DNA from: Sinorhizobium garamanticum
GTDB lineage: Bacteria > Pseudomonadota > Alphaproteobacteria > Rhizobiales > Rhizobiaceae
Assembly (NCBI RefSeq): GCF_029892065.1
Contig: NZ_CP120373.1
Coordinates: 1,485,501 to 1,549,500 of the forward strand
Reading direction: 5' to 3'
DNA length: 64,000 nt
The position numbers and the translations under genes were made by a program. Shown here piece after piece: positions 2,661 to 63,007 of this stretch; the first letter of the stretch is position 1, and the number at the start of each line of letters is the position of its first letter. The notes beneath the pieces are model-generated. The model ran no database searches and had not been told where the DNA came from. It saw only the letters and a list, made by a program, of their open reading frames with translations.

Positions 2661-3344
2661 ATGGCGACACGTACCATTCTCCTTGTCGATGACGACAATG
2701 ACCTGCGCGAAACATTGGTAGAGCAGCTTTCTCTCTATGAGGAGTTCGACCTCCTGCAAGAGGCGACCGCCGGCAAGGGGATCCAGGCGGCCCGTGCGCA
2801 CCAGGTCGACCTCCTGATCATGGATGTCGGCCTGCCCGATATGGATGGCCGTGAGGCCGTCAAGCTCCTGCGCAAAGGCGGCTTCAAGGCACCGATCGTC
2901 ATGCTGACCGGGCACGACACCGATTCGGACACCATCCTCGGGCTCGAAGCGGGCGCCAACGACTACGTCACTAAGCCGTTCCGCTTTGCCGTGCTGCTCG
3001 CCCGCATCCGCGCCCAGCTTCGTCAGCACGAGCAGAGCGAGGACGCCACCTTCAGCGTTGGTCCCTACACCTTCAAGCCAAGCCAGAAACTGCTGACGAT
3101 GGAGAATGGCCAGAAGATCCGCCTGACGGAGAAGGAAGCGGCAATCATCCGCTATCTCTATCGCGCCGATCAGAAAGTGGTCACGCGCGATGTCCTGCTC
3201 GAGGAGGTCTGGGGCTACAATTCCGGCGTCACCACGCACACGCTGGAGACGCATGTGTACCGGCTCCGTCAGAAAATCGAGCGCGACCCTTCCAATGCGG
3301 AGATTTTGGTGACAGAGAACGGCGGCTATAAGATCGTTCCTTAA
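2661..3344 (+). CDS. cenR: OmpR-family response regulator, CenR-like
   Basis: A 227-residue response regulator with an N-terminal receiver domain (acidic DDD near residues 10-12, phospho-acceptor Asp in LIMDVGLPD near residue 55, Thr in VMLTGH, Lys in YVTKPF) and a C-terminal winged helix (VWGYNSGVTTHTLETHVYRLR). The strict conservation of the IRAQLRQHEQSEDA linker and GPYTF segment resembles Caulobacter CenR, a regulator of envelope integrity. No histidine kinase gene is adjacent; in Caulobacter cenK is also encoded apart. The name rests on remembered family similarity, so another OmpR-type assignment is possible. Confidence 0.75.
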   Translation: MATRTILLVDDDNDLRETLVEQLSLYEEFDLLQEATAGKGIQAARAHQVDLLIMDVGLPDMDGREAVKLLRKGGFKAPIVMLTGHDTDSDTILGLEAGANDYVTKPFRFAVLLARIRAQLRQHEQSEDATFSVGPYTFKPSQKLLTMENGQKIRLTEKEAAIIRYLYRADQKVVTRDVLLEEVWGYNSGVTTHTLETHVYRLRQKIERDPSNAEILVTENGGYKIVP

Positions 3345-3394
3345 GCGGGATCGCGGAAAGTGGTGAAGCGGCTTGCCGTTTCCGCATTCCGCTC
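3345..3394. repeat. Palindromic repeat of the AGCGGGAT...ATTCCGCT family
   Basis: An imperfect palindrome starts at the cenR stop: AGCGGGATCGCGGAAA on the left and TTTCCGCATTCCGCT on the right, with a short non-paired centre. A related element occurs at 30,256-30,307. Such hairpins are scattered through Sinorhizobium intergenic regions and may also stabilise or terminate the cenR transcript. Confidence 0.6.
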
Positions 3395-3404
3395 GTCAAA
3401 GTGC

Positions 3405-3509
3405 GTTGCCGCGCCGCACGTCTGTGAGACGCGCGAGGGACGCTGTAGCCCTTTTGGTTAGTGCATGTTTTATCCTTAGATCGACTACGACCTAAGGAAA
3501 CATGCAGCA
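3405..3509 (-). repeat. RIME1-like mosaic element
   Basis: Reading leftwards: palindrome one (GCATGTTTCCTTAG ... CTAAGGATAAAACATGC) followed by ACAGCG and palindrome two (GCGCGTCTCACAGACGTGCGG). The same two-palindrome unit of about 105 bp recurs at 15,830, 20,419, 22,548 and 37,841. The layout matches the rhizobial intergenic mosaic element RIME1. It reaches into the first possible codons of the following gene. Confidence 0.75.
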
Positions 3510-16814: not shown

Positions 16815-16842
16815 CCGCGTGCCACGCAGCGCGCTATCAAAC

Positions 16843-16901
16843 GATCCGTGGTGATTTGGCCGGCCGGCTTGCAGCCACGTTAAAGAAATCGCTAAAGGGC
16901 C
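16843..16901 (+). promoter_or_regulatory. SAM-II riboswitch
   Basis: The segment CGTGGTGATTTGGCCGGCC then GGCTTGCAGCCACGTTAAAG and CGCTAAAG matches the SAM-II (metA motif) consensus: the P1 arms CGTGG/CCACG, the conserved GATTTG loop side, the GCTTGCAGCC region and the trailing GCTAAA pseudoknot strand. Upstream of metA is the classical location in alphaproteobacteria. S-adenosylmethionine binding is expected to lower metA expression. Confidence 0.93.
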
Positions 16902-16922
16902 GAGGAAAAATGGATTTCCAAG

Positions 16923-45321: not shown

Positions 45322-45411
45322 GGAGAGGTGGCAGAGTGGTTGAATGCACCGCACTCGAAATGCGGCATGGGTGCAAGCCCATCGGGGGTTCGAATCCCCC
45401 CCTCTCCGCCA
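45322..45411 (+). tRNA. tRNA-Ser (CGA)
   Basis: A 90-base class II tRNA: acceptor GGAGAGG/CCTCTCC, anticodon arm CCGCACTCGAAATGCGG with anticodon CGA, a long variable arm (GGGTGCAAGCCC), T-arm GGGGGTTCGAATCCCCC, and encoded CCA. A TTGTC ... TATGAA pair about 40-60 bases upstream could be its promoter. Accessory genes start right after it. Confidence 0.97.
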
Positions 45412-46029: not shown

Positions 46030-47718
46030 GTGAACGTCCATCAACAGACCGATTTCTCCATCGAGGATTGCAGGGCTCAACTCGCGCGCATTCTGACCAG
46101 CGCGGACTTTCAAGCGACTGATCGCGAGCGTCGGTTCCTCAGTTATGTCGTGGGTGAAACCTTGGCGGGGCGCAGCAATCTCATCAAGGCCTATTCGATA
46201 GCCGTAGAGGTGTTCGACCGTGACACGTCTTTCGACCCTCAGGCAGACCCGATTGTGCGCGTCGCAGCCGGTCAACTCCGCAGGGCGCTTGAGCGGTATT
46301 ATCTGACCGCCGGGCTAGCCGACCCCATTCTCATCAGCATTCCAAAGGGCGGATACGCTGCCACGTTCTCACTGCGCGGCACCCGACGTCCCGCCGCGGA
46401 AGAACCTGTCTACGCGGACGCATTCGAGCCCCCGCGGCCGCGCCCGCTGAGCAAGCCTTGGCTCATAGCCGCGGTCGCCATGCTGTTGGCCGCTGTCTCA
46501 GTGCTGGGCTTTTGGTCATATTCATTCCGGCTTTCTCCGAGGAAGCCCGAATTGCCGCATTTGCTGGTCGAGTGGTTCGACGACATGGATGGGTCGGACG
46601 AAACTGCGGCTTTGGCCCGTGGGTTTACGCAGGAGATCGTAAGTCAGCTCGTCAAGTTTAAGGACATTGTCGTGGTTCAACCACTCGGCCAGGTGGGACC
46701 GGACGTACGCTACGTGGTCGCAGGAAGCGTCGATATGTCGGACGAGTCCTTCCGATTTCGGGTTCGCATGCTCAATCGCGCGGACGGATCGGTGCTCTGG
46801 GCGCACAGCTACGATGGTACGACACGAGTTCCCGATCTTCTGAAGGTTCAAGCCGACATTGCCGCTGATGTAGCGACAAGCCTGGCACAGGCATATGGTG
46901 CGATATTCGAGGCAGACGCCAAGCGCATTGTTCCCGGCGCTCCCAACGACCGCGCCGCATATTTCTGCACGCTTTCCTATTACTCGTATAGGGCCGGCTT
47001 CGATCCAGAAGCGCGTCCGTCCGTTCGTTCATGTCTCGAGAAAGCTGTAGAGCGCTTTCCAGCGTACTCAACCGCTTGGGCACTTCTATCACTGATCTAC
47101 ATTGACGAAGTTCGATTCCGTTATCCATTCGATTCCACGAGCTCGACCCCGTTGATCGATCGCGCTGTTGCTGCAGCCGCTCGTGCGGTGGAATTGGAGC
47201 CGACCAACGTCCGGGCTCTCCAGGCACAGATGATCGCTCTCTATTTCAAGGGGGAGATCGATGCGGCCATGAGAGTGGGGCGCCGCGGCATGAGCATCAA
47301 TCCAAACGACACCGTGTTTCTGGGCGAGTACGGCTATCGGCTAGCACTTTCCGGAAATTGGAGGGAAGGGTGCCTGTTGGTCGCAGAGGCGCGTAAACGC
47401 AATCCGGGACCTCTGGCCTATTATGAGGTGGGATTAGCCGTCTGCGCCTATTTCAGCGGCGACATCCGACAGGCGGTCATGTGGATCAAAAACGCCAACA
47501 CTTCCGGCAATGCGCTCTATCATGTGATTGCCGCGGCGATCTTTGCCGAAGGAGGCTATGCGGCAGACGCGGCAGGAGAGCGTGCCTGGCTCATGCAGCA
47601 TGCGCCAGGCTTGGTAACGAACGTTCGTCAAGAGGCGTTGTTGCGGTTTGGCCGTTTGGAAGACGCCGAAAGATTCCTCCGTTCGCTGAGGAAGGCAGGC
47701 TTGGAATTCTCCAATTGA
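46030..47718 (+). CDS. Membrane-anchored TolB-like/TPR protein of the 'adenylate cyclase-like' group
   Basis: 562 residues, GTG start. Residues about 10-115 form a conserved rhizobial N-terminal domain (RERRFLSYVVGETLAGR, YSIAVEVFDRDTSFDPQADPIVRVAAGQLRRALERYY, IPKGGYAATF). One membrane helix follows at about 143-165 (WLIAAVAMLLAAVSVLGFW). Then comes a TolB/cyclase-associated domain (AALARGFTQEIVSQLVKF, YVVAGSVDMSDESFRFRVRML, GSVLWAHSYD) and TPR helices to the end. No cyclase catalytic domain and no standard DNA-binding helix is seen. Because it directly precedes the giant autotransporter it may sense or regulate surface display; this is inference. Confidence 0.7.
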   Translation: MNVHQQTDFSIEDCRAQLARILTSADFQATDRERRFLSYVVGETLAGRSNLIKAYSIAVEVFDRDTSFDPQADPIVRVAAGQLRRALERYYLTAGLADPILISIPKGGYAATFSLRGTRRPAAEEPVYADAFEPPRPRPLSKPWLIAAVAMLLAAVSVLGFWSYSFRLSPRKPELPHLLVEWFDDMDGSDETAALARGFTQEIVSQLVKFKDIVVVQPLGQVGPDVRYVVAGSVDMSDESFRFRVRMLNRADGSVLWAHSYDGTTRVPDLLKVQADIAADVATSLAQAYGAIFEADAKRIVPGAPNDRAAYFCTLSYYSYRAGFDPEARPSVRSCLEKAVERFPAYSTAWALLSLIYIDEVRFRYPFDSTSSTPLIDRAVAAAARAVELEPTNVRALQAQMIALYFKGEIDAAMRVGRRGMSINPNDTVFLGEYGYRLALSGNWREGCLLVAEARKRNPGPLAYYEVGLAVCAYFSGDIRQAVMWIKNANTSGNALYHVIAAAIFAEGGYAADAAGERAWLMQHAPGLVTNVRQEALLRFGRLEDAERFLRSLRKAGLEFSN

Positions 47719-47880
47719 CGCCTCTGACGAGGTGCTCTTCTCCATGTTCAGTACAGTAAATTACCTTCCTTTGCGAAAAAGCTTCCTCAAAAGAAGAATC
47801 GTGCTGATGGGCGGTGCAGGCTACCGGATTCTGTGAATCTTTTCCCGATGACCATCGCGCAAGACACGATGCGAGGTGGC

Positions 47881-50800
47881 ATGCGGCAGGACTCGGATAC
47901 GCAAACTTATGACCGCCCGAAAATTTGGGAGCCATCAAATAGACTAAGCCATGACGTGATCGAACGCTTGCGCACGATACGCGGCGGTCGCATGACGAAA
48001 TGGAAAGGGGAAGTGGCCAGCTACGCCCCCCACCTCGTCGGGCTTTTCTCAAGCGTCGCCCGCAAGATGGCGGGCAAGTTTCTGCCCTTGGCGCTGCTGA
48101 CCGGGCTTGCCGCAAGCCCCGTTCCGGCAGCGGACCTGTATTGGGACGTCAACAACACATCCCTCAATCGCGGTGGCACCGGCACCTGGAATCTGACCGC
48201 TCCAGTCTGGAGCGCCAGCGACGACGGTGTGAGCGGCCCCTACAGTGCCTGGGACAACGGGGCGCTCCACGACGCCTTCTTCGGCAGCACGGCCGGCACC
48301 GTAACCCTTGGCGTGCCAATCACCGTGCACGACATCACGTTCCAGACCAACGGCTACACCATCACGGGCGGCATCCTGACTCTAGACGGTGTCGATCCGA
48401 CCCTTTCGGTCACCACCGGCACCTCCACCATTTCCTCGGTGATCAACAGCACCAGCGGACTGATCAAGGCCGGCGGCGGAACCCTGACGCTGAACGGCAG
48501 CAACACCTTCAACGGCGGGATCGACATTAATGGCGGGACGCTGGCGCTGAACGCCGCCAACAGCTTCATCGGCGACATCAACCTCAATACTGGCAATCTC
48601 GGTATCGGCGCAATCGGCGACGCTGCCCTTGGCGATATCGGCAATGTCATCAACATGCAGCCGGGGCGCGGCCTGAGCGCCAACGGCGCGCTCGATAGCA
48701 ACCGGACGGTAAACCTGGTTGGGGCAGGCGGCCACACCATCAGCGGCGCTGGCGTCGGCAGCGCCTATTTCACCGGCGAAGGCGCCCTCACCGCCAGTGG
48801 CTCGGTCGCCATGACCAACGACGCCAATGACTATACCGGCCGGACTGCGTTCACAGGCAGCGGCACGTCCAGGTTCACCTCGATCGGCAACCTGGGCGAG
48901 GTGAGCTCCCTGGGGGCGCCCATTACGGCAGCCGACGGCACCATACTTTTCACGAATTCAAGCCAGACCAACCTAACACTCATATATACCGGCGATGGCG
49001 ACTCCTCCGACCGCAATTGGACCATCAATCCGGGTTCGGGGCCTAGCGTCCGGCCTCAGCTCCGCAACGGCGGCACCGGCACGCTGACGCTGACCGGCAA
49101 CATCGCCCTTGGGGGCGGTTCGGGAAACGATCCCGAGTTCTACGCACAGAGCGCCGACATGGAACTGCTCGGCGTGATCAGCAGCAACAACGCCCGTCCG
49201 ATCTCATTTATCGCGGATTCGGGACGGACTGTCAGACTGGGGAACGCCAACACGTTTTCCGGTGGCCCGGCCATCGGCGGTGCGGGAACGGTGGTGGCCG
49301 GCACCATCGCTGACACGGGCGTAGCCAGTTCGCTGGGCACAGGCAGCGGGATAAGCATCAGCGGCAATGGCACTCTGAGCTATACGGGCGCCTCCGCGAG
49401 CAGCAATCGCAACTGGTCAATCAACAACGGCACGCTCAGCAATGACGGTACGGGCGCCCTCACCCTTAGCGGTAGCACGGCGATCGCCGGTACCGCCACG
49501 CTCGGCGGCAGCTTTACCGGCGCCAACAACGTCGTTTCCGGTGTCATCTCTGGCAGCGGCAACCTGAGGAGCGGCGGCGATGCCACCTGGATAGTCGCGG
49601 GCGCCAATACCTACACCGGCCAGACCGTAGTTGACAGCGGTACGTTGCGCGCCGGCTCGGTCGACGCGTTCGGCAGCTCGACCCGATTCTTGGTCAATGG
49701 CGGCACGCTGGACTTGAACAACTTCGACCGGACGCTGACCACTCTGACTGGCACGGGCGGCACGCTGGACCTGGGCAGCGCCACGCTGACGCTGGAGGCG
49801 CCGACGGGCACCAGCGCGGCCTTCGCCGGCAGCATCACCGGCACAGGCGGCCTGAACAAGCTGGGCGGCAGCAGCCAGACCCTGACGGGCGCCAGCACCT
49901 ATACCGGCGACACCGTCATCGGCGGCGGCACTCTGAACCTCGATTTCAGCGGTGCAGGCGGACCAACCAGCGGCGTCATCGGTAGCGGCTCTACCCTGAG
50001 CATGGGCGGTGGCACCCTGAATGTGATCGGCGCGGCCGGCGAGACCAATGTCCAGACCTTCGACGGTGTGAACATCACCGCCGGCAACAACACCATCGAC
50101 GCCAGCTCGGGAAGCGGCGGCAGCCTGACCGTCAATCTGGGCGCCATCACCCGCACCGGTGGTCTCGTCAACTTCAACCTGCCGGACAGCGGCACTATCA
50201 CCACGACCAACACCGCACTGGGCGGCTGGGCCACGGTCAACGGCACCGATTACGCCAAGGTCGAAGGCGGCAATATCCTCGCGTTCGAGGACAGCGACTA
50301 CACCGACAAGGACGATGCCGGCACCTGGCTCGACAACGAATACATCAACGATGTCGACGGCTTTTCCGGCAGAGTGAACGGCAGCGTGCAACTGGCTGGC
50401 CTGCGCTACACCCAGCCGGTGTCCACTACGGTGACTGTGGACCCCGGCGAGACCCTGGGCGTGGACGGCGCGATCATCGTTTCCCCCTCGGTGTTGAACA
50501 CCAACCAGTTGATCACCGGCGGAATGATCACCGGCGCCGCCGGCGGTGACCTGGGTGTCCGGCAGAACAGCACAGGCAATTTCACCATCAATTCTCAGAT
50601 TGTCGACAATGGCGCCGGCACTGGGTTCGTCAAGGCCGGCACCGGGTTGGTTACCCTGGGCAACGACAGCAACAGCTACACTGGGGCGACGCAGGTCGTG
50701 CAGGGCACGCTGTCCGTCGGCAGCATCCGGAATGGCGGCGTGGCCAGCGGCATCGGCGCGTCCTCCGCCGATTCGTCCAGCCTGGTGCTCGAAGGCGGGA

Positions 50801-53800
50801 TCCTGCGATACACCGGCGCCGGCGACACCAGCGACCGCGGCTTTACCATCGTCAAGTCCGGCGCCATCACCGGCGCTGGGATCGAAGTGACCGATCCAAA
50901 CGCCAACCTGACCTTCTCCGGTCTGGTCACCAGCCCCGACGACGCCAACTTCAGCAAGAGCGGGCCGGGCACGCTGACGCTCGCCAACGGCGCCAATGAT
51001 TACACCGGCGTCACCACCGTCACCGGCGGCATGCTGGGGGCCACGACCCTGGCCAATGGGGGCCAGGTGAGCAGCATCGGCCAGTCTGGCAATGGTTCCG
51101 CCAATCTGGTGCTCGATGGCGGCGGACTGCAATACACAGGCGGCACCGTCACCACCGACCGCGGCTTCACGTTGGGTGTCAACGACGGCACGATCGACGT
51201 GGCTGATCCGACCACCACCTTGACGTTCACCGGCAACGTCGTTGGTCCGGGCGGCGCCCTTACCAAGGAAGGCGACGGTACCTTGGTGCTCTCCGGCACC
51301 AACACTTACACCGGTGGCAACACCGTCAACGCAGGGATCCTTCGCGCCGGCTCCACCCAAGCCTTCGGAGCCCCCACCGTTGCCGCCACCATGACCTTGG
51401 CCGACGCGGCCGGCGTCACACTGGACCTGGATGGCTTCGACAACACCATTGGCCCCCTTAACGGCGGCGGCGGCAATGGCGGCAACGTGACCCTGGGCTC
51501 GGCTACCTTGCGCATCGCCGGCGGCAACGGCAACTATTCGGGTGTTATCAGCGGCACAGGTGGCGTCTGGCGCACCAATGGCGGCACTCAGACCTTCAAC
51601 GGCTGCAACAACACCTATACCGGCCCCACGACCCTGCAGGGCGCCAACCTGAGCACCGACTGCCTTGCCGACGGCGGCGAGGCCAGCGGCATTGGCGCCT
51701 CCAGTGCTGATTCCACCAATCTCGTGCTCAACGACGGCACACTTTTCTATACCGGCGGCGACGCCGTCACCGATCGCGGCTTCCAGCTTTCGGGAAGCAA
51801 TAGCGGTATCAATGTGACCAACGCCGGAACCACCCTGGAATTCGAGGGGGACGCCATCGGCGGCGGATCGCTCGTTAAGGGCGGCGCCGGCACGCTGGTG
51901 TTATCGGGGAACAACACTTATACCGGCAACACGAGCGTGACTGGCGGCGTGCTGCGCGCGGCGACGACCAACGCGTTCGGCCCGCAGGGTCATATGTCGC
52001 TGAGCAACGCGGCCGGGGTGCTTCTGGATCTCGACGGCTTCGATACGGTGGTGACCTCACTGATCGGCGGCGGCGCCAACGGAGGCGACATCAGCCTGGG
52101 CAGCGCCACGCTGACGATCAATAGTGTCGACAACCGCAGCTACGCCGGCGCGATCAGCGGCACCGGCAATCTGATCAAGAACGGCAACACCACACAGGCG
52201 CTCGTGGGCTGCGATAGTAGCTACACGGGCAGCACCGTGATCAATGCCGGTACGCTGCAAGTGGCCTGTCTGGAGGACGGCGGCGTCAACAGTTCGATCG
52301 GGGCTTCCACATCCGATCCCGCCAACCTGGTGCTCAACGGCGGCACTCTGAACTATGCCGGCAGCGGCGGCAGCACCGATCGCCAGTTTATATTGGGTGC
52401 CAGTGGCCGCACGCTGTCCTCCAGTGGCACGGGTCCCATTGCATTTGCCTATGCCGGTTCGGTCACGCTGGCAGGCATCGATGCGGCGCGAACCCTCACA
52501 CTAACCGGCACCAACACCGGCACGAACATCTTCTCCGCGCAACTCGCCGACAACGGCACGGGCGCCACCTCGCTCACCAAGACCGGTACTGGTCTCTGGC
52601 GCCTGACCAACGACAACAGCACCTATACCGGCATCACCACCATCAGCGGCGGCATTCTCGAGATCGATCAGATGGCCGACGGCGGCTTGCCCAGCAGCAT
52701 CGGCGCGTCCTCCAATGCCGCCGCCAATCTGGTGATCGGCAACGAATCGACCCTGCGCTATACTGGTGCCGGCGACACCACCGACCGCCAGTTCACCCTG
52801 GACACCGGCGTCACCTACATCGAATCTTCCGGCACGGGTCCGCTGGTCTTCAGCAATACGGGTCCCGTGACCCTGACCGGCACCGACACGCCCCGAACCA
52901 TTGCGCTCGGCGGTACCAATACCGGTAACAACACCATGGGCGGCGCCATAGGGGACAATGGCACAGGCGCCACGACGCTCGCCAAGAACGACAGCGGCAC
53001 CTGGGTGCTGACCGGCAACAATAGCTATTCCGGCAATACCGTCATCAATGACGGAAACCTCGTAATCGGCAATGGCGGCACGTCAGGTAATGCCGGCGTC
53101 GGCAACGTGATTGTAGATTCGCCGACCTCAACCCTGTCGCTCAACCGCAGCGACACCTTCACTTTTGACGGCACGCTGAGCGGGCCTGGAACCCTGGCAC
53201 AGATCGGCGTGGGCGCCAGCGTGCTGACTTCGGCGAACAACGCCATCGGCGCCACGACCATCAGTGCGGGCACTCTGGAGGTGGCTGGAGGTCTCGAGGC
53301 ACCCACCATCGCCATGACCGGGAGTTCCACCCTGACCGTTGGCGGCACGGTACAGGCTGCCGGTTCCACCCAGGTGGCGATCACCGGCGATGCCGGTAAC
53401 AACACGATCAATATAAATCCCGGCGGCATTCTCAGGGCGTCGGGCGATCTGGGCGGCGGCAGCGATGTGGTGACCGTGGCGGGTCTGCTCAACACCGGCG
53501 CCGGCACGCTGGCGCTCGGCACCGGCGACGATACGCTGACCCTGAATGATGGAGCGAGCATCAGCGGCGGCGGGGTTGAAGCTCGTGCCGGCACGGACAC
53601 TCTTGAGGTGAACAACGCTCAGTCCCTGACCCTCGACGGGGCAAGCGTCGGCGGCTTCGAGATCCTTACCAAGGACAACATCGGCACGCTGACGCTCACC
53701 GGCGACCATGGGTATGCCAATGGCACGACCATCTCCGACGGCACGCTGCAGATCGGCAATGGCGGTACCTCCGGTTCGCTCGAAAGCGACGTGCTCAACA

Positions 53801-56800
53801 ACGGCAGGCTCGCCTTCAACCGCTCGGATACCTACAGCTTTACCGGCCTAGTCTCGGGCAACGGCTCGCTTGAGCAGATCGGTGGCGGCACCACCATTCT
53901 GACGGGTGACAACAGTTATTCCGGTCCCACCACCGTGCAATCGGGCAGGTTGTACATCAATGGCGACCAATCCGGCGCGACCGGGCCGACCTCAGTTGCA
54001 GGTGGCGCGACGCTCGGCGGAACGGGCACGGTCGGCGGCGATGTCGCCCTGGTCGCTGGCGCCGTCCTCGACCCCGGCAATCCGGGGTCGCTTCCTGGCA
54101 CTTTAACCGTCGCTGGCAGTCTCACGCTCGATGACGGGGCGCTCGTCAACTACAGCTTCGGCCAGGCGAATGTCGTCGGCGGCGCCTTCAACGACCTGAC
54201 CGTTGTGGGCGGAGACCTCGTGCTCGACGGCACGCTTAATATCACGGAAACGCCTGGGGGCGATTTCGGCCCGGGTCTCTACCGTATCTTCAGCTATGGC
54301 GGCACGCTCACGGACAACGGCCTCGATGTCACGTCCTCCGATCTCTACGTGCAGACCTCCGTCGCGAACCAGGTCAATCTGGTCGATACGAGCGGGAACC
54401 AACTCACCTTCTGGGATGGCGCTGCCGGTCCGGTGAACGACGGGGCCATCCAGGGTGGAAACGGGGTCTGGCGCCTTGCCGACAATGAACGCTGGACGAC
54501 CGGCACAGGCGCCTACAACGCGCCCTACGCCAACAGCGCCTTCGCTGTGTTTACCGGTACGGGTGGCACGGTGATCATCGACAATGCGAATGGCCAGGTC
54601 GAAGCCTCAGGTATGCAGTTCGCGGCCGATGGCTATGTTATCGACGGAGAGCCCCTGACACTGGTCGGCGGTTCGTCGACCATCCGCGTCGGCGACGGCA
54701 CGATCGACGGCGCCAACATGATGGCGACCATCGCTGCGGAACTCGCCGGCGCCTCCACGCTGGTCAAGACCGATCTGGGTACGCTGGTGCTTTCAGGCGC
54801 CAACACCTACACGGGCGGCACGAGGATAGAGACCGGCACGCTGCAGGTCTCAAGCGACGGCAACCTGGGCGACGCGGCCGGTGCAATCGCCTTCGACGGC
54901 GGCACGCTGCGGAACACCGCCTCTTTCGCGTCGGCACGCGCCGTCACGCTGGAGGACGAGGGCGGCACGTTTCAGACCGACGCCGACCTCATGCTTTCCG
55001 GCGTGATCGGCGGCACGGGTGCGCTTACCAAGACCGGCGGCGCCACGCTGACGCTTGCCGGCCTCAATACCTACGGGGGTGGCACCTTCATCGACGCGGG
55101 CGTGGTGTCGGTCTCGAGCGACACGAACCTTGGCGATGCGGCCGGTGCAATCACCTTCGATGGCGGCACGTTGCAGAACACTGCCGCTTTCGCCTCGGCG
55201 CGCGGCGTTACCATGGAAGACGGCGGCGGTACGTTCCAGACCGACGCGGATCTGCTTCTCTCCGGCGTGATCGATGGCACTGGTTCGCTGACCAAGACCG
55301 GGACTGGCACGCTGGCGCTCACGGGCGCGAACAGCTATGGCGGTGGCACGACGATCTCCGGTGGCACGCTGCAACTCGGGGACGGCGGTGCGTCGGGTTC
55401 GATCCGCGGTGACGTGCTCAACAATGGCACGCTCGCCTTCAACCGTTCAGGCACCTACACCTTCGCCGGCCTGATCTCGGGCAGCGGTTCGCTCGAGCAG
55501 ATCGGTAGCGGCGCCACCATCCTGACCGGCAACAACACCTATTCAGGCCCGAGCACGGTGCAATCGGGAAGCCTGCTCATCAATGGCGACCAGTCCGGCG
55601 CGACGGGACTCACCACGGTTGCAAGCGGCGCCACGCTCGGCGGGATCGGTACGATTGGCGGCGGCGTGACGATAGCCGACGGCGGCATTCTCGATCCTGG
55701 CGATCTGGGCATCGTTCCCAGAACGCTCACCATCAATGGCGGTCTGGCACTCAGCACCGGTTCGAACCTCAATTACAATTTCGGCCAGGCGAATGTGGTC
55801 GGCGGAGCCTTCAACGACCTAACCGTGGTGGGCAGTGACCTTGAACTCGACGGCACGCTGAACGTGACCCAGTCTGCGGGCGGCAGTTTTATCCCGGGCA
55901 TATACCGCATCATCAGCTACGAGGGCGCGCTCACCGACAACGGCCTCAGCCTCGGCGCCATGCCGTCCGGCGATTTCCTCGTGCAGACCTCGATCGACAA
56001 GCAGGTCAATCTGGTCAACGCGACGGGCGTGACGCTCAATTTCTGGGACGGGCCAGACGGCACCGCCAATGATGGCAGCATTCATGGTGGCGACGGCGTC
56101 TGGCGGCGCGCCGACAACGACCACTGGACCAACGACACGGGCCTGATCAACGCGCCCTATTCGAACGGCGCCTTCGCCGTGTTCGCGGGCCAGCCGGGAA
56201 CCGTGACTATCGACAACGGCAACGGCCAGGTGGAAGCCCTCGGCATGCAATTCGCCGCCGACGGTTATGTGATCGATGGCGAGCCACTGACCCTGGTCGG
56301 CGGTTCATCCGTCATCCGCGTCGGCGACGGCACGCTCGACGGCACGAACATGGTGGCGACCATCGCTGCAGAGCTCGCCGGCTCATCCACGCTGGTCAAG
56401 GCCGATCTCGGCACATTGGTACTTTCCGGGGTCAATACCTACACCGGCGGAACGGTGATCGAGGAAGGCACGCTGCAGATCTCCGCTGACGAGAACCTGG
56501 GCGATGCTCCCGGAGGGATAACGCTCGATGGCGGCACGTTGCGTAACACGGCCTCTCTGGAGAGTGGCCGCAGCGTGACCCTGGCGAGCACCGGAACCTT
56601 TCTCATCGATGCTGGGACGAGCTTCACCCTCAACGGCACGCTCGATGGCCCCGGCGGCTTCACCAAGGCAGGGGGCGGCACGCTGCTCCTTGCCGGCGCC
56701 TCCTCCTATGATGGAACCACCACGGTGAACGGCGGCACGCTGCAGGCCGGATTGGCCGGCGCGTTCAGCCCGTCTTCGGCCTTTTCGGTTGGCGGCAATG

Positions 56801-58236
56801 GCACGCTCGATCTTGGCGGCTTCGACCAGACGGTGGCTTCACTGGCCAATGCCGGGACGGTGAAGCTGTCGGGTGCGCCGGGAACGACGTTGACGGTTGC
56901 GGGTAATTATGAGGGTCGTGGCGGGACGATCCTCCTGAACGCCGTGCTCGGCGGAGATGGCTCGGTGACCGACCGCCTCGTTGTGACCGGCGATAGCTCG
57001 GGCAGCACCGATCTGCACGTCGCCAATGTCGGCGGTGGCGGCGCACAAACCGTGGACGGCATCAAGGTCGTCGACGTCGGCGGCGCGTCAAGCGGCAGGT
57101 TTTCCCTTCATGGCGATTACATTTATGAAGGCGATCAAGCCGTTGTCGCTGGCGCCTATGCCTATCGGCTCTTCAAGGGCGGCGTGAGTACGCCGGCCGA
57201 TGGCGACTGGTACTTACGCTCTGCCCTGGCAGACGATCCGAGCGATCCGCTCTATCAACCGGGTGTTCCGCTCTATGAGGCTTATGCCGGTTCTCTGCAG
57301 GCTTTCAACAGCCTCGGTACCTTGCAGCAGCGTGTCGGCAACAGGTCTTGGGTCGCCCGCGACGACGCGCGAGCGCAAGAGGACGGCACCGACGACTCCG
57401 ACGGTATCTGGGGGCGGATCGAGGCGGCCCACGCCGACTTCGAGCCTAAGATATCAACCAGTGGCACCGACTATGATGCGACCACATGGAAACTCCAGGC
57501 AGGCATCGACGGTTTGCTCGACGAGGACGAATCTGGACGGTTGATCGCAGGTGCGTCCATCCATTATGGCAGCGTCTCCTCCAACGTCACGTCGGCCCAT
57601 GGTATTGGCAGTATCGACACGACCGGTTACGGTCTTGGTGGCACGCTGACCTGGTACGGCAATACCGGCTTCTATCTCGACAGCCAGGCGCAGGCGACGT
57701 GGTACAATAGCGATCTCTACTCCGCCACCGCCGGGCAAGGCCTCGTCAACGATAATGACGGAACGGGCTACGCGCTCAGCATCGAAACCGGTCAGCGCAT
57801 TGCGCTGGATGAGATCTGGGCGCTGACGCCGCAAGCCCAGCTCACCTATTCCTCGGTGCGGTACGATGACTTCACCGATCGCTTCAATGCCGACGTGTCG
57901 CTCGACAAGAGCTGGAGCCTTGTTGGCCGACTCGGCCTGGCCGTCGACCGCCAGACCGAGTGGCAGGATACGGAAGGTCGCACCGGTCGCTCGCATCTCT
58001 ATGGAATCGCCAACCTCTATTACGACTTCGCCGACGGCTCTCGGGTCGACGTGGGAGGAACCCGCTTCACGAGCGAAAATGGCCCATGGCGAGGCGGCGT
58101 CGGCCTGGGCTGGTCGGTCAACTGGGCCGATGACAGATACTCGCTCTATGGCGAGGCGCTGGCGGATACCAGCCTGGAAAACTTCGGGGGCACCAACAGC
58201 GTGAGCGGCACCGTCGGTTTCAGGGTGCGGTGGTAG
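47881..58236 (+). CDS. Giant autotransporter with PATR beta-helix repeats
   Basis: About 3,451 residues, type Va secretion. A signal region ends near FLPLALLTGLAASPVPA-ADLYW. The passenger is a stack of autotransporter-associated beta-strand repeats (G-TL-L-G-N-YTG-T-V--GTL pattern, e.g. GTLVLSGTNTYTGGNTVNAGIL). The last ~300 residues (from about 57,300) are the beta-barrel, ending GTVGFRVRW. Larger units repeat: a ~606-base unit (51,340-52,550, two copies) and a ~1.63-kb unit (53,740-57,000, two copies). Only four cysteines occur, as two C-X18-C pairs. The start is unsettled: ATG 47,881 follows GAGGTGG; GTG 47,833, ATG 47,992 and ATG 48,067 are possible. Likely an adhesin or biofilm protein. 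Confidence 0.9.
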   Translation: MRQDSDTQTYDRPKIWEPSNRLSHDVIERLRTIRGGRMTKWKGEVASYAPHLVGLFSSVARKMAGKFLPLALLTGLAASPVPAADLYWDVNNTSLNRGGTGTWNLTAPVWSASDDGVSGPYSAWDNGALHDAFFGSTAGTVTLGVPITVHDITFQTNGYTITGGILTLDGVDPTLSVTTGTSTISSVINSTSGLIKAGGGTLTLNGSNTFNGGIDINGGTLALNAANSFIGDINLNTGNLGIGAIGDAALGDIGNVINMQPGRGLSANGALDSNRTVNLVGAGGHTISGAGVGSAYFTGEGALTASGSVAMTNDANDYTGRTAFTGSGTSRFTSIGNLGEVSSLGAPITAADGTILFTNSSQTNLTLIYTGDGDSSDRNWTINPGSGPSVRPQLRNGGTGTLTLTGNIALGGGSGNDPEFYAQSADMELLGVISSNNARPISFIADSGRTVRLGNANTFSGGPAIGGAGTVVAGTIADTGVASSLGTGSGISISGNGTLSYTGASASSNRNWSINNGTLSNDGTGALTLSGSTAIAGTATLGGSFTGANNVVSGVISGSGNLRSGGDATWIVAGANTYTGQTVVDSGTLRAGSVDAFGSSTRFLVNGGTLDLNNFDRTLTTLTGTGGTLDLGSATLTLEAPTGTSAAFAGSITGTGGLNKLGGSSQTLTGASTYTGDTVIGGGTLNLDFSGAGGPTSGVIGSGSTLSMGGGTLNVIGAAGETNVQTFDGVNITAGNNTIDASSGSGGSLTVNLGAITRTGGLVNFNLPDSGTITTTNTALGGWATVNGTDYAKVEGGNILAFEDSDYTDKDDAGTWLDNEYINDVDGFSGRVNGSVQLAGLRYTQPVSTTVTVDPGETLGVDGAIIVSPSVLNTNQLITGGMITGAAGGDLGVRQNSTGNFTINSQIVDNGAGTGFVKAGTGLVTLGNDSNSYTGATQVVQGTLSVGSIRNGGVASGIGASSADSSSLVLEGGILRYTGAGDTSDRGFTIVKSGAITGAGIEVTDPNANLTFSGLVTSPDDANFSKSGPGTLTLANGANDYTGVTTVTGGMLGATTLANGGQVSSIGQSGNGSANLVLDGGGLQYTGGTVTTDRGFTLGVNDGTIDVADPTTTLTFTGNVVGPGGALTKEGDGTLVLSGTNTYTGGNTVNAGILRAGSTQAFGAPTVAATMTLADAAGVTLDLDGFDNTIGPLNGGGGNGGNVTLGSATLRIAGGNGNYSGVISGTGGVWRTNGGTQTFNGCNNTYTGPTTLQGANLSTDCLADGGEASGIGASSADSTNLVLNDGTLFYTGGDAVTDRGFQLSGSNSGINVTNAGTTLEFEGDAIGGGSLVKGGAGTLVLSGNNTYTGNTSVTGGVLRAATTNAFGPQGHMSLSNAAGVLLDLDGFDTVVTSLIGGGANGGDISLGSATLTINSVDNRSYAGAISGTGNLIKNGNTTQALVGCDSSYTGSTVINAGTLQVACLEDGGVNSSIGASTSDPANLVLNGGTLNYAGSGGSTDRQFILGASGRTLSSSGTGPIAFAYAGSVTLAGIDAARTLTLTGTNTGTNIFSAQLADNGTGATSLTKTGTGLWRLTNDNSTYTGITTISGGILEIDQMADGGLPSSIGASSNAAANLVIGNESTLRYTGAGDTTDRQFTLDTGVTYIESSGTGPLVFSNTGPVTLTGTDTPRTIALGGTNTGNNTMGGAIGDNGTGATTLAKNDSGTWVLTGNNSYSGNTVINDGNLVIGNGGTSGNAGVGNVIVDSPTSTLSLNRSDTFTFDGTLSGPGTLAQIGVGASVLTSANNAIGATTISAGTLEVAGGLEAPTIAMTGSSTLTVGGTVQAAGSTQVAITGDAGNNTININPGGILRASGDLGGGSDVVTVAGLLNTGAGTLALGTGDDTLTLNDGASISGGGVEARAGTDTLEVNNAQSLTLDGASVGGFEILTKDNIGTLTLTGDHGYANGTTISDGTLQIGNGGTSGSLESDVLNNGRLAFNRSDTYSFTGLVSGNGSLEQIGGGTTILTGDNSYSGPTTVQSGRLYINGDQSGATGPTSVAGGATLGGTGTVGGDVALVAGAVLDPGNPGSLPGTLTVAGSLTLDDGALVNYSFGQANVVGGAFNDLTVVGGDLVLDGTLNITETPGGDFGPGLYRIFSYGGTLTDNGLDVTSSDLYVQTSVANQVNLVDTSGNQLTFWDGAAGPVNDGAIQGGNGVWRLADNERWTTGTGAYNAPYANSAFAVFTGTGGTVIIDNANGQVEASGMQFAADGYVIDGEPLTLVGGSSTIRVGDGTIDGANMMATIAAELAGASTLVKTDLGTLVLSGANTYTGGTRIETGTLQVSSDGNLGDAAGAIAFDGGTLRNTASFASARAVTLEDEGGTFQTDADLMLSGVIGGTGALTKTGGATLTLAGLNTYGGGTFIDAGVVSVSSDTNLGDAAGAITFDGGTLQNTAAFASARGVTMEDGGGTFQTDADLLLSGVIDGTGSLTKTGTGTLALTGANSYGGGTTISGGTLQLGDGGASGSIRGDVLNNGTLAFNRSGTYTFAGLISGSGSLEQIGSGATILTGNNTYSGPSTVQSGSLLINGDQSGATGLTTVASGATLGGIGTIGGGVTIADGGILDPGDLGIVPRTLTINGGLALSTGSNLNYNFGQANVVGGAFNDLTVVGSDLELDGTLNVTQSAGGSFIPGIYRIISYEGALTDNGLSLGAMPSGDFLVQTSIDKQVNLVNATGVTLNFWDGPDGTANDGSIHGGDGVWRRADNDHWTNDTGLINAPYSNGAFAVFAGQPGTVTIDNGNGQVEALGMQFAADGYVIDGEPLTLVGGSSVIRVGDGTLDGTNMVATIAAELAGSSTLVKADLGTLVLSGVNTYTGGTVIEEGTLQISADENLGDAPGGITLDGGTLRNTASLESGRSVTLASTGTFLIDAGTSFTLNGTLDGPGGFTKAGGGTLLLAGASSYDGTTTVNGGTLQAGLAGAFSPSSAFSVGGNGTLDLGGFDQTVASLANAGTVKLSGAPGTTLTVAGNYEGRGGTILLNAVLGGDGSVTDRLVVTGDSSGSTDLHVANVGGGGAQTVDGIKVVDVGGASSGRFSLHGDYIYEGDQAVVAGAYAYRLFKGGVSTPADGDWYLRSALADDPSDPLYQPGVPLYEAYAGSLQAFNSLGTLQQRVGNRSWVARDDARAQEDGTDDSDGIWGRIEAAHADFEPKISTSGTDYDATTWKLQAGIDGLLDEDESGRLIAGASIHYGSVSSNVTSAHGIGSIDTTGYGLGGTLTWYGNTGFYLDSQAQATWYNSDLYSATAGQGLVNDNDGTGYALSIETGQRIALDEIWALTPQAQLTYSSVRYDDFTDRFNADVSLDKSWSLVGRLGLAVDRQTEWQDTEGRTGRSHLYGIANLYYDFADGSRVDVGGTRFTSENGPWRGGVGLGWSVNWADDRYSLYGEALADTSLENFGGTNSVSGTVGFRVRW
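51340..52550 (+). repeat. Two ~606-base passenger units with cysteine pairs
   Basis: Unit 1 (from about 51,340) and unit 2 (from about 51,946) encode matching series: AFG, AAGV-LDLDGFD, LGSAT, ISGTG, G-NN/DSSYTG, C-LADGG or C-LEDGG, IGAS. Corresponding cysteine codons are 606 bases apart (51,604 and 52,210; 51,661 and 52,267). Confidence 0.75.
53740..57000 (+). repeat. Two ~1.63-kb tandem passenger units
   Basis: The first unit (about 53,740-55,365) and second (about 55,365-57,000) share DVLNNG-LAFNRS-TY-F-GL, NGDQSGATG, FGQANVVGGAFNDLTVVG, FWDG, QFAADGYVIDGEPLTLVGGSS and ELAG-STLVK. FWDG codons lie at 54,409 and 56,041, an offset of 1,632 bases (544 codons). Confidence 0.8.
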
Positions 58237-61803: not shown

Positions 61804-62020
61804 ACCCAATGCGCTGCATCGCACGCAATTTTCCTAGGAACCAAGATCAGCGGGAAAATACAACGTGTTAGTCGGTCCATCGGCCACCCTGAGCGACCAT
61901 CCCAATAGGCTGTTTGCGAGGTCCATGTGGCATCAAATGGCAAGCGACGCGCTTGCGCTTGCTGTAACGCTATAACCAGGCGTTGCAAACGTATTGTCGC
62001 CATGGGGTCAAGGGGGAAGC
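61804..62020. other. Gap between the small secreted protein gene and the FGE gene
   Basis: About 217 bases. No gene, clear terminator or promoter seen. Confidence 0.3.
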
Positions 62021-63007
62021 GTGACGTTGGAATCGGCTCACGGAACCGTCGTTGCCGGGCGTGTGCGCGCCGGCATGATCTTCATAGAGGGCGGAACCTT
62101 CTCGATGGGGTCCGACGGACACTATCCCGAAGAGGGGCCGGTGCATCGCGCGAGCGTCGATGGCTTTCATATCGATGAAGCGCCTGTGACGAATGCCGAG
62201 TTTTCGGAGTTTATTGCGGCGACCGGCTATCGCACATTCGCGGAGTCTCCTCCTGATCCACGGGACTATCCCGGCATTTTGCCAGAGATGCTGTACGCCG
62301 GTTCACTGGTATTTCATCAGCCGAACGGGGCTATTGACCTGCAAGACTGGACTCAATGGTGGTCCTTTCTGAAGGGGGCCTGCTGGCGTCAGCCATGCGG
62401 CCCCGGAAGCAACATCAAAGGGCTGGATGACCATCCGGTCGTTCATGTTTCCTATCACGACGCGCTCGCGTACGCCCGGTGGAGCGGAAAGGATCTTCCA
62501 ACCGAGGCAGAGTGGGAATTTGCTGCGAGAGGCGGCCTCGAGGGCGCCGAATATGCCTGGGGTTCAGAATTCACTCCCGCCGGACGCCATCTGGCCAATA
62601 CCTGGCAGGGGGCCTTCCCGACTGTCAATGACGTTGAGGACGGCTTTTCGCGCACCTCTCCGGTCAAAGCCTTTCCGCCGAACGGATACGGCTTGTACGA
62701 CATGATCGGCAACGTTTGGGAGTGGACGTCCGACTGGTTTTCGTCGCGGCACGAGGCAGACGCCTCGAAGGCGTGCTGTATTCCCAGAAATCCTCGCGGC
62801 GGACGCGAAGCCGACAGCTATGATCCCTGCCAGCCCGAGATAAGAATTCCGCGCAAGGTCTTGAAGGGCGGATCCCATCTTTGTGCGCCCAATTACTGCC
62901 GCCGCTACCGTCCCGCGGCGCGGCATGCCGAGGCGATCGACACGTCGACGTGTCACGTAGGTTTCAGATGTGTTGTCAGACCAGGAGAGTTGTATGAAGT
63001 CACCTAA
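62021..63007 (+). CDS. Formylglycine-generating enzyme (sulfatase-modifying factor) family protein
   Basis: 328 residues, FGE/SUMF1 domain. Seen are MIFIEGGTFSMGSDGHYPEEGPVH, FHIDEAPVTNAEFSEFI, HPVVHVSYHDALAYARWSGKDLPTEAEWEFAARGG, MIGNVWEWTSDWF and GGSHLCAPNYCRRYRPAARH, which holds both catalytic cysteines (C-x4-C), so aerobic-type activity is expected. It oxidises the sulfatase Cys to formylglycine. No signal peptide, so it acts in the cytoplasm before export. Start uncertain: GTG at 62,021 behind GGGGGA, TTG 61,994 or ATG 62,075. Overlaps the sulfatase start by 14 bases. Confidence 0.92.
   Translation: MTLESAHGTVVAGRVRAGMIFIEGGTFSMGSDGHYPEEGPVHRASVDGFHIDEAPVTNAEFSEFIAATGYRTFAESPPDPRDYPGILPEMLYAGSLVFHQPNGAIDLQDWTQWWSFLKGACWRQPCGPGSNIKGLDDHPVVHVSYHDALAYARWSGKDLPTEAEWEFAARGGLEGAEYAWGSEFTPAGRHLANTWQGAFPTVNDVEDGFSRTSPVKAFPPNGYGLYDMIGNVWEWTSDWFSSRHEADASKACCIPRNPRGGREADSYDPCQPEIRIPRKVLKGGSHLCAPNYCRRYRPAARHAEAIDTSTCHVGFRCVVRPGELYEVT

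What the first reader, a model, noticed from the sequence alone, without database searches (positions are those of the whole stretch)
47881..58236. Giant autotransporter whose only four cysteines form two identical C-X18-C pairs
Reading the whole passenger I find four cysteines, at codons 51,604/51,661 and 52,210/52,267. Each pair is separated by 18 residues, about one turn of a beta-helix, and the pairs sit at the same place in two ~202-residue repeats. Autotransporter passengers usually avoid cysteine because disulfides hinder passage through the barrel. A conserved rung-to-rung disulfide, or a delayed one formed outside, would be unusual. This is inference from spacing.
Basis: partly seen in the sequence, partly recalled or inferred. 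Interest (0 to 1): 0.72.

Follow-up and report, generated by a model that had tools for sequence, protein, structure and literature searches.

The report
Giant adhesin with paired-cysteine staples
A very large surface protein of a soil bacterium carries two pairs of cysteines, and in the relatives examined each pair is kept whole or lost whole, which is what one expects if each pair forms a bond that staples neighbouring turns of a spiral protein that must be threaded through a narrow pore.

Summary
In detail: the 3467-residue autotransporter at 47833-58236 has only four cysteines, two C-X18-C pairs at the same place in two repeats 202 residues apart. It is not chance. In 199 aligned rows (window included) pair 1 is C+C in 194 and absent in 5, pair 2 is C+C in 153 and absent in 46; half pairs: 0 of 398. 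A tree needs at least 2 + 8 changes, both cysteines together each time. In 195 family proteins 1042 of 1049 cysteines beyond residue 100 lie in neighbour pairs with at most 22 residues between (random placement 7%); 39 PATR proteins outside the family pair no more than at random. Hydrophobic residues recur every 19 residues, matching the cysteine spacing. Best reading: each pair is a disulfide stapling adjacent beta-helix turns, with loops near the ~20-residue limit reported for autotransporter secretion. The nearest studied relative is BmaC, a fibronectin-binding Brucella adhesin. Disulfides in autotransporters are known; this one-turn, all-or-none, tandem form is a new variant. No 3D model could be made; the bond itself is inferred.

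The parts
47833..58236 (+). giant type Va autotransporter, 3467 aa, BmaC relative (window frame starts at GTG 47833; ATG at 47881)
   Evidence: relatives
47992..48132 (+). N-terminal signal region, residues 54-100, hydrophobic stretch ending ...SPVPAA before DLYWD
   Evidence: inspection of the translation; no signal-peptide program was run
48280..53757 (+). conserved 'head' of the passenger, about residues 150-1975, shared at about 68-78% with relatives whose stalk and barrel regions match at only about 22-28%
51310..51915 (+). repeat module 1, residues 1160-1361, with cysteine pair 1
   Evidence: 45% identical to module 2
51604..51663 (+). C-X18-C pair 1: C1258 (51604-51606) and C1277 (51661-51663), around the Tyr-Thr-Gly of a PATR segment
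   Evidence: C+C in 194 of 199 rows, half pairs 0
51916..52521 (+). repeat module 2, residues 1362-1563, with cysteine pair 2
52210..52269 (+). C-X18-C pair 2: C1460 (52210-52212) and C1479 (52267-52269)
   Evidence: C+C in 153 of 199 rows, half pairs 0
56833..57171 (+). autochaperone domain AC_1 (PF18883), residues 3001-3113
56872..58233 (+). match to the autotransporter barrel model TIGR01414, residues 3014-3467
46030..47718 (+). gene directly upstream, 562 aa, weak TPR match; a relative (77-81% identical) stands upstream in 3 of the 12 loci

Best explanation
The gene encodes a very large classical (type Va) autotransporter, probably an adhesin of the BmaC kind. In the conserved, membrane-distal half of its passenger, two consecutive PATR-containing modules each carry a cysteine pair that forms a disulfide within the module, tying one turn of the beta-helix to the next. 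The loop (18 residues, one turn) is small enough to be oxidised by DsbA in the periplasm and still pass the outer-membrane barrel as a hairpin; outside it becomes a vertical staple that stabilises that part of the stalk. A lone thiol would be worse than none (mispairing, or intermolecular bonds that jam translocation), so both cysteines are gained or lost together. Shown here: pairing, concerted change, 19-residue periodicity, family relationship, matches to DsbA and DsbB models in the genome. Inferred: that the bond forms, when it forms, and its stabilising role.
For: 0 half pairs among 398 pair sites in 199 rows. At least 2 (pair 1) and 8 (pair 2) changes on the tree, always of both cysteines; for pair 2 all 7 independent row pairs on well-supported branches go the same way, sign test p 0.0156. 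In 50 of 199 rows a pair is missing; in 49 of these the other pair is complete, so bonds C1258-C1460 or C1277-C1479 would leave orphans. 1042 of 1049 cysteines after residue 100 in 195 family proteins (window's own included) are in neighbour pairs with at most 22 residues between, against 7.3% for random placement. The C-X21-C module of other relatives shows 94 full, 157 empty and 0 half pairs, with 221 more hits gapped at one column. No other cysteine occurs in the ~400-residue region in any of the 199 rows. At lost sites the closest Cys-bearing orthologue is more alike than the best Cys-free paralogue of the same protein in 51 of 51 (by the median orthologue 26 of 51), so the losses look like substitutions more than segment replacement. 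Hydrophobic period 19. Four matches to the DSBA model and one to DsbB in the genome. Loops of over 20 residues are reported to be incompatible with Pet translocation (PMC10269718, passage); loops here are mostly 17-19.
Against: No structure or chemistry: prediction was off. Profile similarity at lag 19 around the cysteines is not raised. By my reading of the strands the Cys-bearing PATRs have one residue more before the Tyr than common PATRs, so the turn could be 20 there and the cysteines one residue out of register. Pair 1 shows only 2 changes, too few for a test of its own. The tree is a quick one with many weak branches. One cysteine that I place in a passenger appears truly unpaired (P0084 residue 2867). 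94 pairs have 21-residue loops, above the reported limit, so 'small enough to pass oxidised' may not hold for them.
Confidence: 0.75

Rival explanations
1. The cysteines form the disulfide only after the passenger has left the cell (delayed oxidation); in the periplasm they stay reduced.
For: X21 loops (94 pairs) exceed the ~20-residue limit reported for Pet (PMC10269718), so at least those might have to cross reduced.
Against: Matches to DsbA and DsbB models are present in the genome. IcsA's pair is reported to be oxidised by DsbB/DsbA before translocation (PMC9769942, passages). X17-X19 loops fit the limit. Oxidation outside alone would not explain why loops stop near 22 residues.
Confidence: 0.17
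2. The pair is not a disulfide but a metal or cofactor site, or a redox switch, made of the two thiols.
For: Two thiols conserved together would also fit a two-cysteine ligand set or a switch; the IcsA paper compares short-spaced pairs with redox switches (PMC9769942, passage). An Asp next to the second cysteine of pair 1 is nearly invariant (D127 of A1).
Against: No His or Glu is among the invariant or nearly invariant columns of A1. The route of export is oxidising (general knowledge). Other pair types in the family (X3, X21) share the pairing but not the motif.
Confidence: 0.05
3. The co-occurrence is only history: pairs move by recombination or gene conversion of whole PATR segments between repeats, so both cysteines come and go together without any bond.
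For: PATR modules are repeats, and the head appears to be exchanged between proteins. By the median orthologue only 26 of 51 lost sites are closer to Cys-bearing orthologues than to the best Cys-free paralogue.
Against: By the closest Cys-bearing orthologue it is 51 of 51 (a generous measure, the best of many). Twenty different residue combinations stand at lost sites. The main cysteine classes, in unrelated modules, are all paired.
Confidence: 0.06
4. Cross-module bonds: C1258 with C1460 and C1277 with C1479, tying the two repeats together.
For: Equal spacing, 202 residues.
Against: 45 rows keep pair 1 without pair 2 and 4 keep pair 2 without pair 1. Cross combinations change together in one shared event only, of 2 informative row pairs and of 2 and 4. 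A loop of about 200 residues would far exceed the reported limit.
Confidence: 0.02

Closest known systems
BmaC, monomeric autotransporter adhesin of Brucella (fibronectin, 340 kDa, polar; PMC7697752 passages, PMC8111173 passages and section 16)
   Same: Homologous over head, stalk and barrel; PATR, AC_1 and barrel; same length class (3400 aa); exactly four cysteines at the matching places, loops X19 and X18.
   Different: 51-64% identical per 150-residue block in the Cys region; residues 1801-1950 of the window protein have no counterpart. What the window protein binds is unknown. Neither paper contains the word cysteine (0 hits; disulfide was looked for only in the second, 0).
IcsA of Shigella, C375/C379 pair (PMC9769942: introduction and passages read)
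   Same: Type Va passenger with a PATR-like segment (5KE1 matched), central Cys pair, disulfide formed via DsbB/DsbA and kept outside (as the paper reports).
   Different: X3 loop, one pair, plus a lone C130 that dimerises; here X18 loops, about one turn apart, two in tandem, no lone cysteine.
C-terminal Cys pairs of VacA and Ssp-1 (as summarised in PMC9769942)
   Same: One close pair within a passenger; its loss lowers protein production.
   Different: Most common spacing said to be 11 residues and near the passenger's C-terminus; here 18 residues, in the N-terminal half.
EspC Cys578-Cys585 in subdomain 2, Ssp Cys445-Cys450 in a loop of the beta-helix (PMC11970781, PMC9977779, passages)
   Same: Short disulfide loops on an autotransporter beta-helix.
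   Different: They lie in a protruding subdomain or loop, with 6 and 4 residues between, not between turns of the helix.
Engineered disulfide loops in Pet (Leyton 2011; paper not held, known through PMC10269718 and recall)
   Same: Loop-size rule that the natural X17-X19 loops here appear to obey.
   Different: Laboratory constructs; here a natural series of 521 neighbour pairs.
Chlamydial Pmp autotransporters (mentioned in PMC8151025)
   Same: Cysteines in passengers of type Va proteins.
   Different: Up to 18 cysteines; pairing not examined here.

Membership tests
Classical (type Va) autotransporter | C-terminal outer-membrane barrel | tested here: met
   TIGR01414, 2.7e-92, residues 3014-3467
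Classical (type Va) autotransporter | repeat-built passenger with PATR and autochaperone | tested here: met
   PF12951 with 18 stretches, PF18883 2.2e-23; the beta-helix itself was not modelled
Classical (type Va) autotransporter | Sec signal peptide | not tested
   only read by eye in the translation
BmaC-type adhesin | homology over the whole length including barrel | tested here: met
   P0131 identical at 0.30-0.64 per 150-residue block, except block 1801-1950, which it lacks
BmaC-type adhesin | binding to fibronectin, polar location | not testable with these tools
   needs experiment
Autotransporter with closely spaced disulfide pair | two cysteines close in sequence, loop not above about 20 | tested here: met
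   X18 twice; limit from PMC10269718
Autotransporter with closely spaced disulfide pair | both cysteines conserved together | tested here: met
   0 half pairs in 398 sites
Autotransporter with closely spaced disulfide pair | bond actually formed | not testable with these tools
   needs non-reducing gel or mass spectrometry
Turn-to-turn (rung) disulfide of a beta-helix | cysteines one turn apart and within bonding distance | tested here: inconclusive
   hydrophobic period 19 supports one turn; profile lag 19 does not; no model

The most novel reading that the evidence does not exclude
A mobile adhesin head with built-in one-turn disulfide staples has spread between autotransporters of alpha-, beta- and gammaproteobacteria (classes by recall from the names), joined to different stalks and barrels. 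Because every cysteine in the passenger must pass the pore, the family is a natural record of what the barrel lets through: loops cluster at 17-19 and 21, hardly any exceed 22 residues, and orphan thiols are purged. The X21 class would mean that some barrels pass larger loops than the laboratory limit, or that oxidation is delayed there.
Probability: 0.4. Interest if true: 0.68.

Novelty: new variant of a known kind. Interest (0 to 1): 0.52.

Why it matters
How much structure a passenger may have while it crosses the outer membrane is a long-standing question for autotransporters. A natural set of 521 neighbour pairs of cysteines in 195 family proteins, with loops that stop near 22 residues and almost no unpaired cysteine, gives that question a direct, testable data set. 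It also points to specific bonds in a studied adhesin family; the two papers on it that were searched for the word do not mention cysteine.

Tried and rejected
Regex scan of PATR segments in the first 120 relatives plus the window: CC 143, C- 2, -C 0, neither 2209. The two 'C-' did not survive: in P0049 the second loop is one residue longer, so its partner was missed; P0024 is a protein outside the family with scattered cysteines, in which no barrel model matched. Later counts use alignments.

Self-similarity of the family profile at lag 19 around the cysteines: no support (best local lag 44, best over the whole region 20). A first hydrophobicity spectrum of the family columns was borderline (top lags 29 and 19, just over the 95% level of shuffles). 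The longer series gave 19 as the top lag for the window passenger and the family heads; the window's stalk alone peaks at 20.

Genome island at tRNA-Ser (45322-45411): no second copy of the last 20, 25 or 30 bases of the tRNA in the window with up to 3 mismatches, so there is no support beyond the patchy distribution (3 of 297 genomes of the order, 6 of 199 of the family, own genome counted).

Loss of both cysteines by replacement of a whole repeat: disfavoured (51 of 51 by the closest orthologue) but not excluded (26 of 51 by the median).

Rows dropped before counting: 39 of 238 sequences under 46% identity or not covering both modules, 36 of 170 in the earlier set. Only the best 120 of 979, 2148 and 1072 hits of the three protein searches were available, so the sample leans to close relatives. 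Cysteines before residue 100 were left out of the pairing count (before residue 80). Neighbour pairing is greedy and counts a pair only up to 22 residues between or 25; the ceiling of 22 is meaningful because with the wider limit nothing above 22 appeared and few cysteines are left over. Of the 7 left over, by my reading: one in a passenger (P0084), two in the C-terminal barrel region (P0087, P0173), two at protein ends (P0129, P0223), and two in P0200 with 27 residues between.

The xanthomonad relatives P0033 and P0040 gave no match to the barrel models of NCBIfam or Pfam, though the C-terminus of P0033 reads like outer-membrane strands ending in VRVRW. That these are autotransported is an inference. 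Only two proteins outside the family were scanned for a barrel (P0024, P0027; none found). That the proteins outside the family come mostly from Verrucomicrobia is read from the names some sources give; many have no name.

Full report
What is there. It has 18 PATR stretches, an autochaperone domain at residues 3001-3113 and an autotransporter barrel match at 3014-3467. It holds four cysteines only: C1258 and C1277, C1460 and C1479, each pair with 18 residues between, the pairs 202 residues apart. The modules around them (1160-1361 and 1362-1563) are 45% identical. The other five frames of the stretch hold 28 to 176 stops; the longest other open stretch is 647 codons on the minus strand, 49417-51360, and was not scanned.

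Where it lies. The window is part of a 6.83 Mb genome in 3 contigs. The gene is patchy: matches at E 1e-30 in 3 of 297 genomes drawn from the order and 6 of 199 drawn from the family, own genome counted; two same-genus genomes had none. The 562-residue gene upstream (46030-47718) has a relative at 77-81% identity upstream of the autotransporter in 3 of the 12 loci; beyond a weak TPR match its function is unknown.

Conservation of the pairs. From three protein searches (best 120 hits of 979, 2148 and 1072) and four loci, 199 distinct rows, the window's included, cover both modules; 39 of 238 sequences were dropped for low identity or coverage. Patterns: both pairs 149, pair 1 only 45, pair 2 only 4, none 1. 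No row has half a pair, and no row has any other cysteine in the ~400-residue stretch. An earlier set of 134 rows gave the same picture: 124, 6, 3 + 1 and 0 half pairs, where 6 rows lack pair 2 or both and 5 lack pair 1 or both (CCCC 124, pair 2 only 4, pair 1 only 5, none 1). On a tree built without the four columns, pair 1 needs 2 and pair 2 needs 8 changes; for pair 2 the 7 independent row pairs on well-supported branches all change both cysteines (sign test p 0.0156). The combinations 1-3 and 2-4 share one event only, of 2 informative row pairs each. The tree is a quick one, 58 of 196 inner branches are drawn open, and the counts are minima.

At sites that lost a pair the surrounding letters still resemble the Cys-bearing orthologues: the closest of these beats the best Cys-free PATR of the same protein in 51 of 51, the median orthologue in 26 of 51. 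Twenty different residue combinations stand there, most often T/S, V/S, G/V, A/S and S/S. This favours substitutions under a shared constraint over swapping of a whole repeat, without excluding the latter.

The rule in whole proteins. In 195 family proteins (window's own included, some of them partial), 1049 cysteines lie after residue 100; 1042 form neighbour pairs with at most 22 residues between (random placement: 7.3%), 7 do not. Loop sizes are X18 281, X21 94, X17 65, X19 43, X3 21, X0 9, others 8. The X21 class is a different module, seen in Lysobacter- and Pseudoxanthomonas-type relatives, with 94 full, 157 empty and 0 half pairs among 472 HMM hits in 130 proteins; the other 221 hits had a gap at one of the two columns. 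In 39 PATR proteins outside the family, mostly named as Verrucomicrobia where named, 10 of 80 cysteines pair, about what random placement gives (11%); 28 of the 39 have no cysteine after residue 100. Two of those 39 were scanned and show no barrel, so the rule may go with passage through a barrel; that link rests on two proteins.

Geometry. Three solved structures match the region's profile at E 0.01 or better: IcsA 5KE1, Ssp 8E7F, fusolisin 8AXG, by my reading all through PATR-like segments. In sequence, hydrophobic residues of the window passenger recur best at 19, then 20 and 21 residues; 8 of 1000 shuffles reach the lag-19 value. In 178 family heads the best lag is again 19; the window's stalk alone peaks at 20. 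A C-X18-C pair spans exactly 19. Against this, the profile around the cysteines is not self-similar at lag 19, so the exact register is open.

How it most likely works. The bond is formed within each module; the loop is about one turn. The literature gives the frame: autotransporter passengers are poor in cysteine and their pairs are close, so that oxidation makes only small loops (PMC8151025, passages); loops of over 20 residues are incompatible with Pet translocation (PMC10269718, passage, citing Leyton 2011, which is not held); IcsA's pair is oxidised via DsbB/DsbA before export and stays oxidised (PMC9769942, passages and introduction). The genome has four matches to the DSBA family model and one to DsbB. 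A turn-to-turn staple fits just under the limit. Shown: pairing, joint change, period. Inferred: the bond, its timing, its purpose. The 94 X21 loops sit slightly above the reported limit and are the best place to look for delayed oxidation or a wider pore.

What it belongs to. The nearest studied protein found is BmaC of Brucella (P0131, 420 member sequences), related over nearly its whole length, with exactly four cysteines at the matching places. Two papers on Brucella adhesins describe BmaC as a 340 kDa, fibronectin-binding, polar adhesin and do not contain the word cysteine (passages, and section 16 of PMC8111173). The window protein is therefore probably an adhesin too; its partner is unknown. 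Ten literature searches were made; none of the papers listed, by title and start of abstract, describes one-turn Cys pairs in PATR proteins. The lists were capped and most subscription papers are not held.

Side finding. The head (about residues 150-1975) is about 68-78% identical between the window and Lysobacter/Pseudoxanthomonas-type proteins whose stalk and barrel regions match at only 22-28%, with the drop near residue 1975, while P0029 of Nitratireductor luteus matches at 76-82% throughout. Of 194 relatives, 38 have a head at 65% or more with a weak, short or missing barrel match, and 7 have a head at 65% or more with a barrel at 60% or more; some of the 38 are truncated proteins. The Cys-bearing head thus seems to be joined to different translocators.

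Verdict. A real, strongly conserved feature with a likely explanation; a new variant of a known kind. The key chemical fact, the bond itself, remains to be shown.

Noticed in passing
window 48280-53757 against 53758-58236: Mosaic protein: the head is about 68-78% identical to Lysobacter/Pseudoxanthomonas-type relatives, whose stalk and barrel regions match at about 22-28%; the break is near residue 1975.
   Followed up: partly
P0022 2020-2042, P0030 2322-2344 and similar: A second cysteine-pair class, C-X21-C, in another repeat type, with no half pairs seen (94 full, 0 half) and loops above the reported 20-residue limit.
   Followed up: partly
P0022 3584-3603, P0030 4000-4019: A C-X18-C pair near the start of the C-terminal barrel region in some relatives.
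   Followed up: no
P0017, P0024, P0027: PATR proteins outside the family with 14-17 cysteines, nearly all unpaired; no barrel model in the two scanned, P0024 and P0027.
   Followed up: partly
window 46030-47718: 562-residue gene with weak TPR match; a relative stands upstream of the autotransporter in L003, L005 and L008.
   Followed up: no
window 45322-45411: tRNA-Ser upstream of the two genes; relatives of the autotransporter are patchy, but no repeated tRNA end was found.
   Followed up: partly
window 49417-51360, minus strand: 647-codon open stretch antisense to the autotransporter gene; likely a by-product of base composition, not scanned against families.
   Followed up: no
window 16838-16915: SAM_alpha riboswitch, 85 bits.
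   Followed up: no
window 61994-63007: Formylglycine-generating-enzyme-like protein (PF03781) downstream; no link to the autotransporter seen.
   Followed up: no
L038 5650-16380 and 16873-19206: In Phyllobacterium zundukense two autotransporter genes stand side by side on a plasmid.
   Followed up: no
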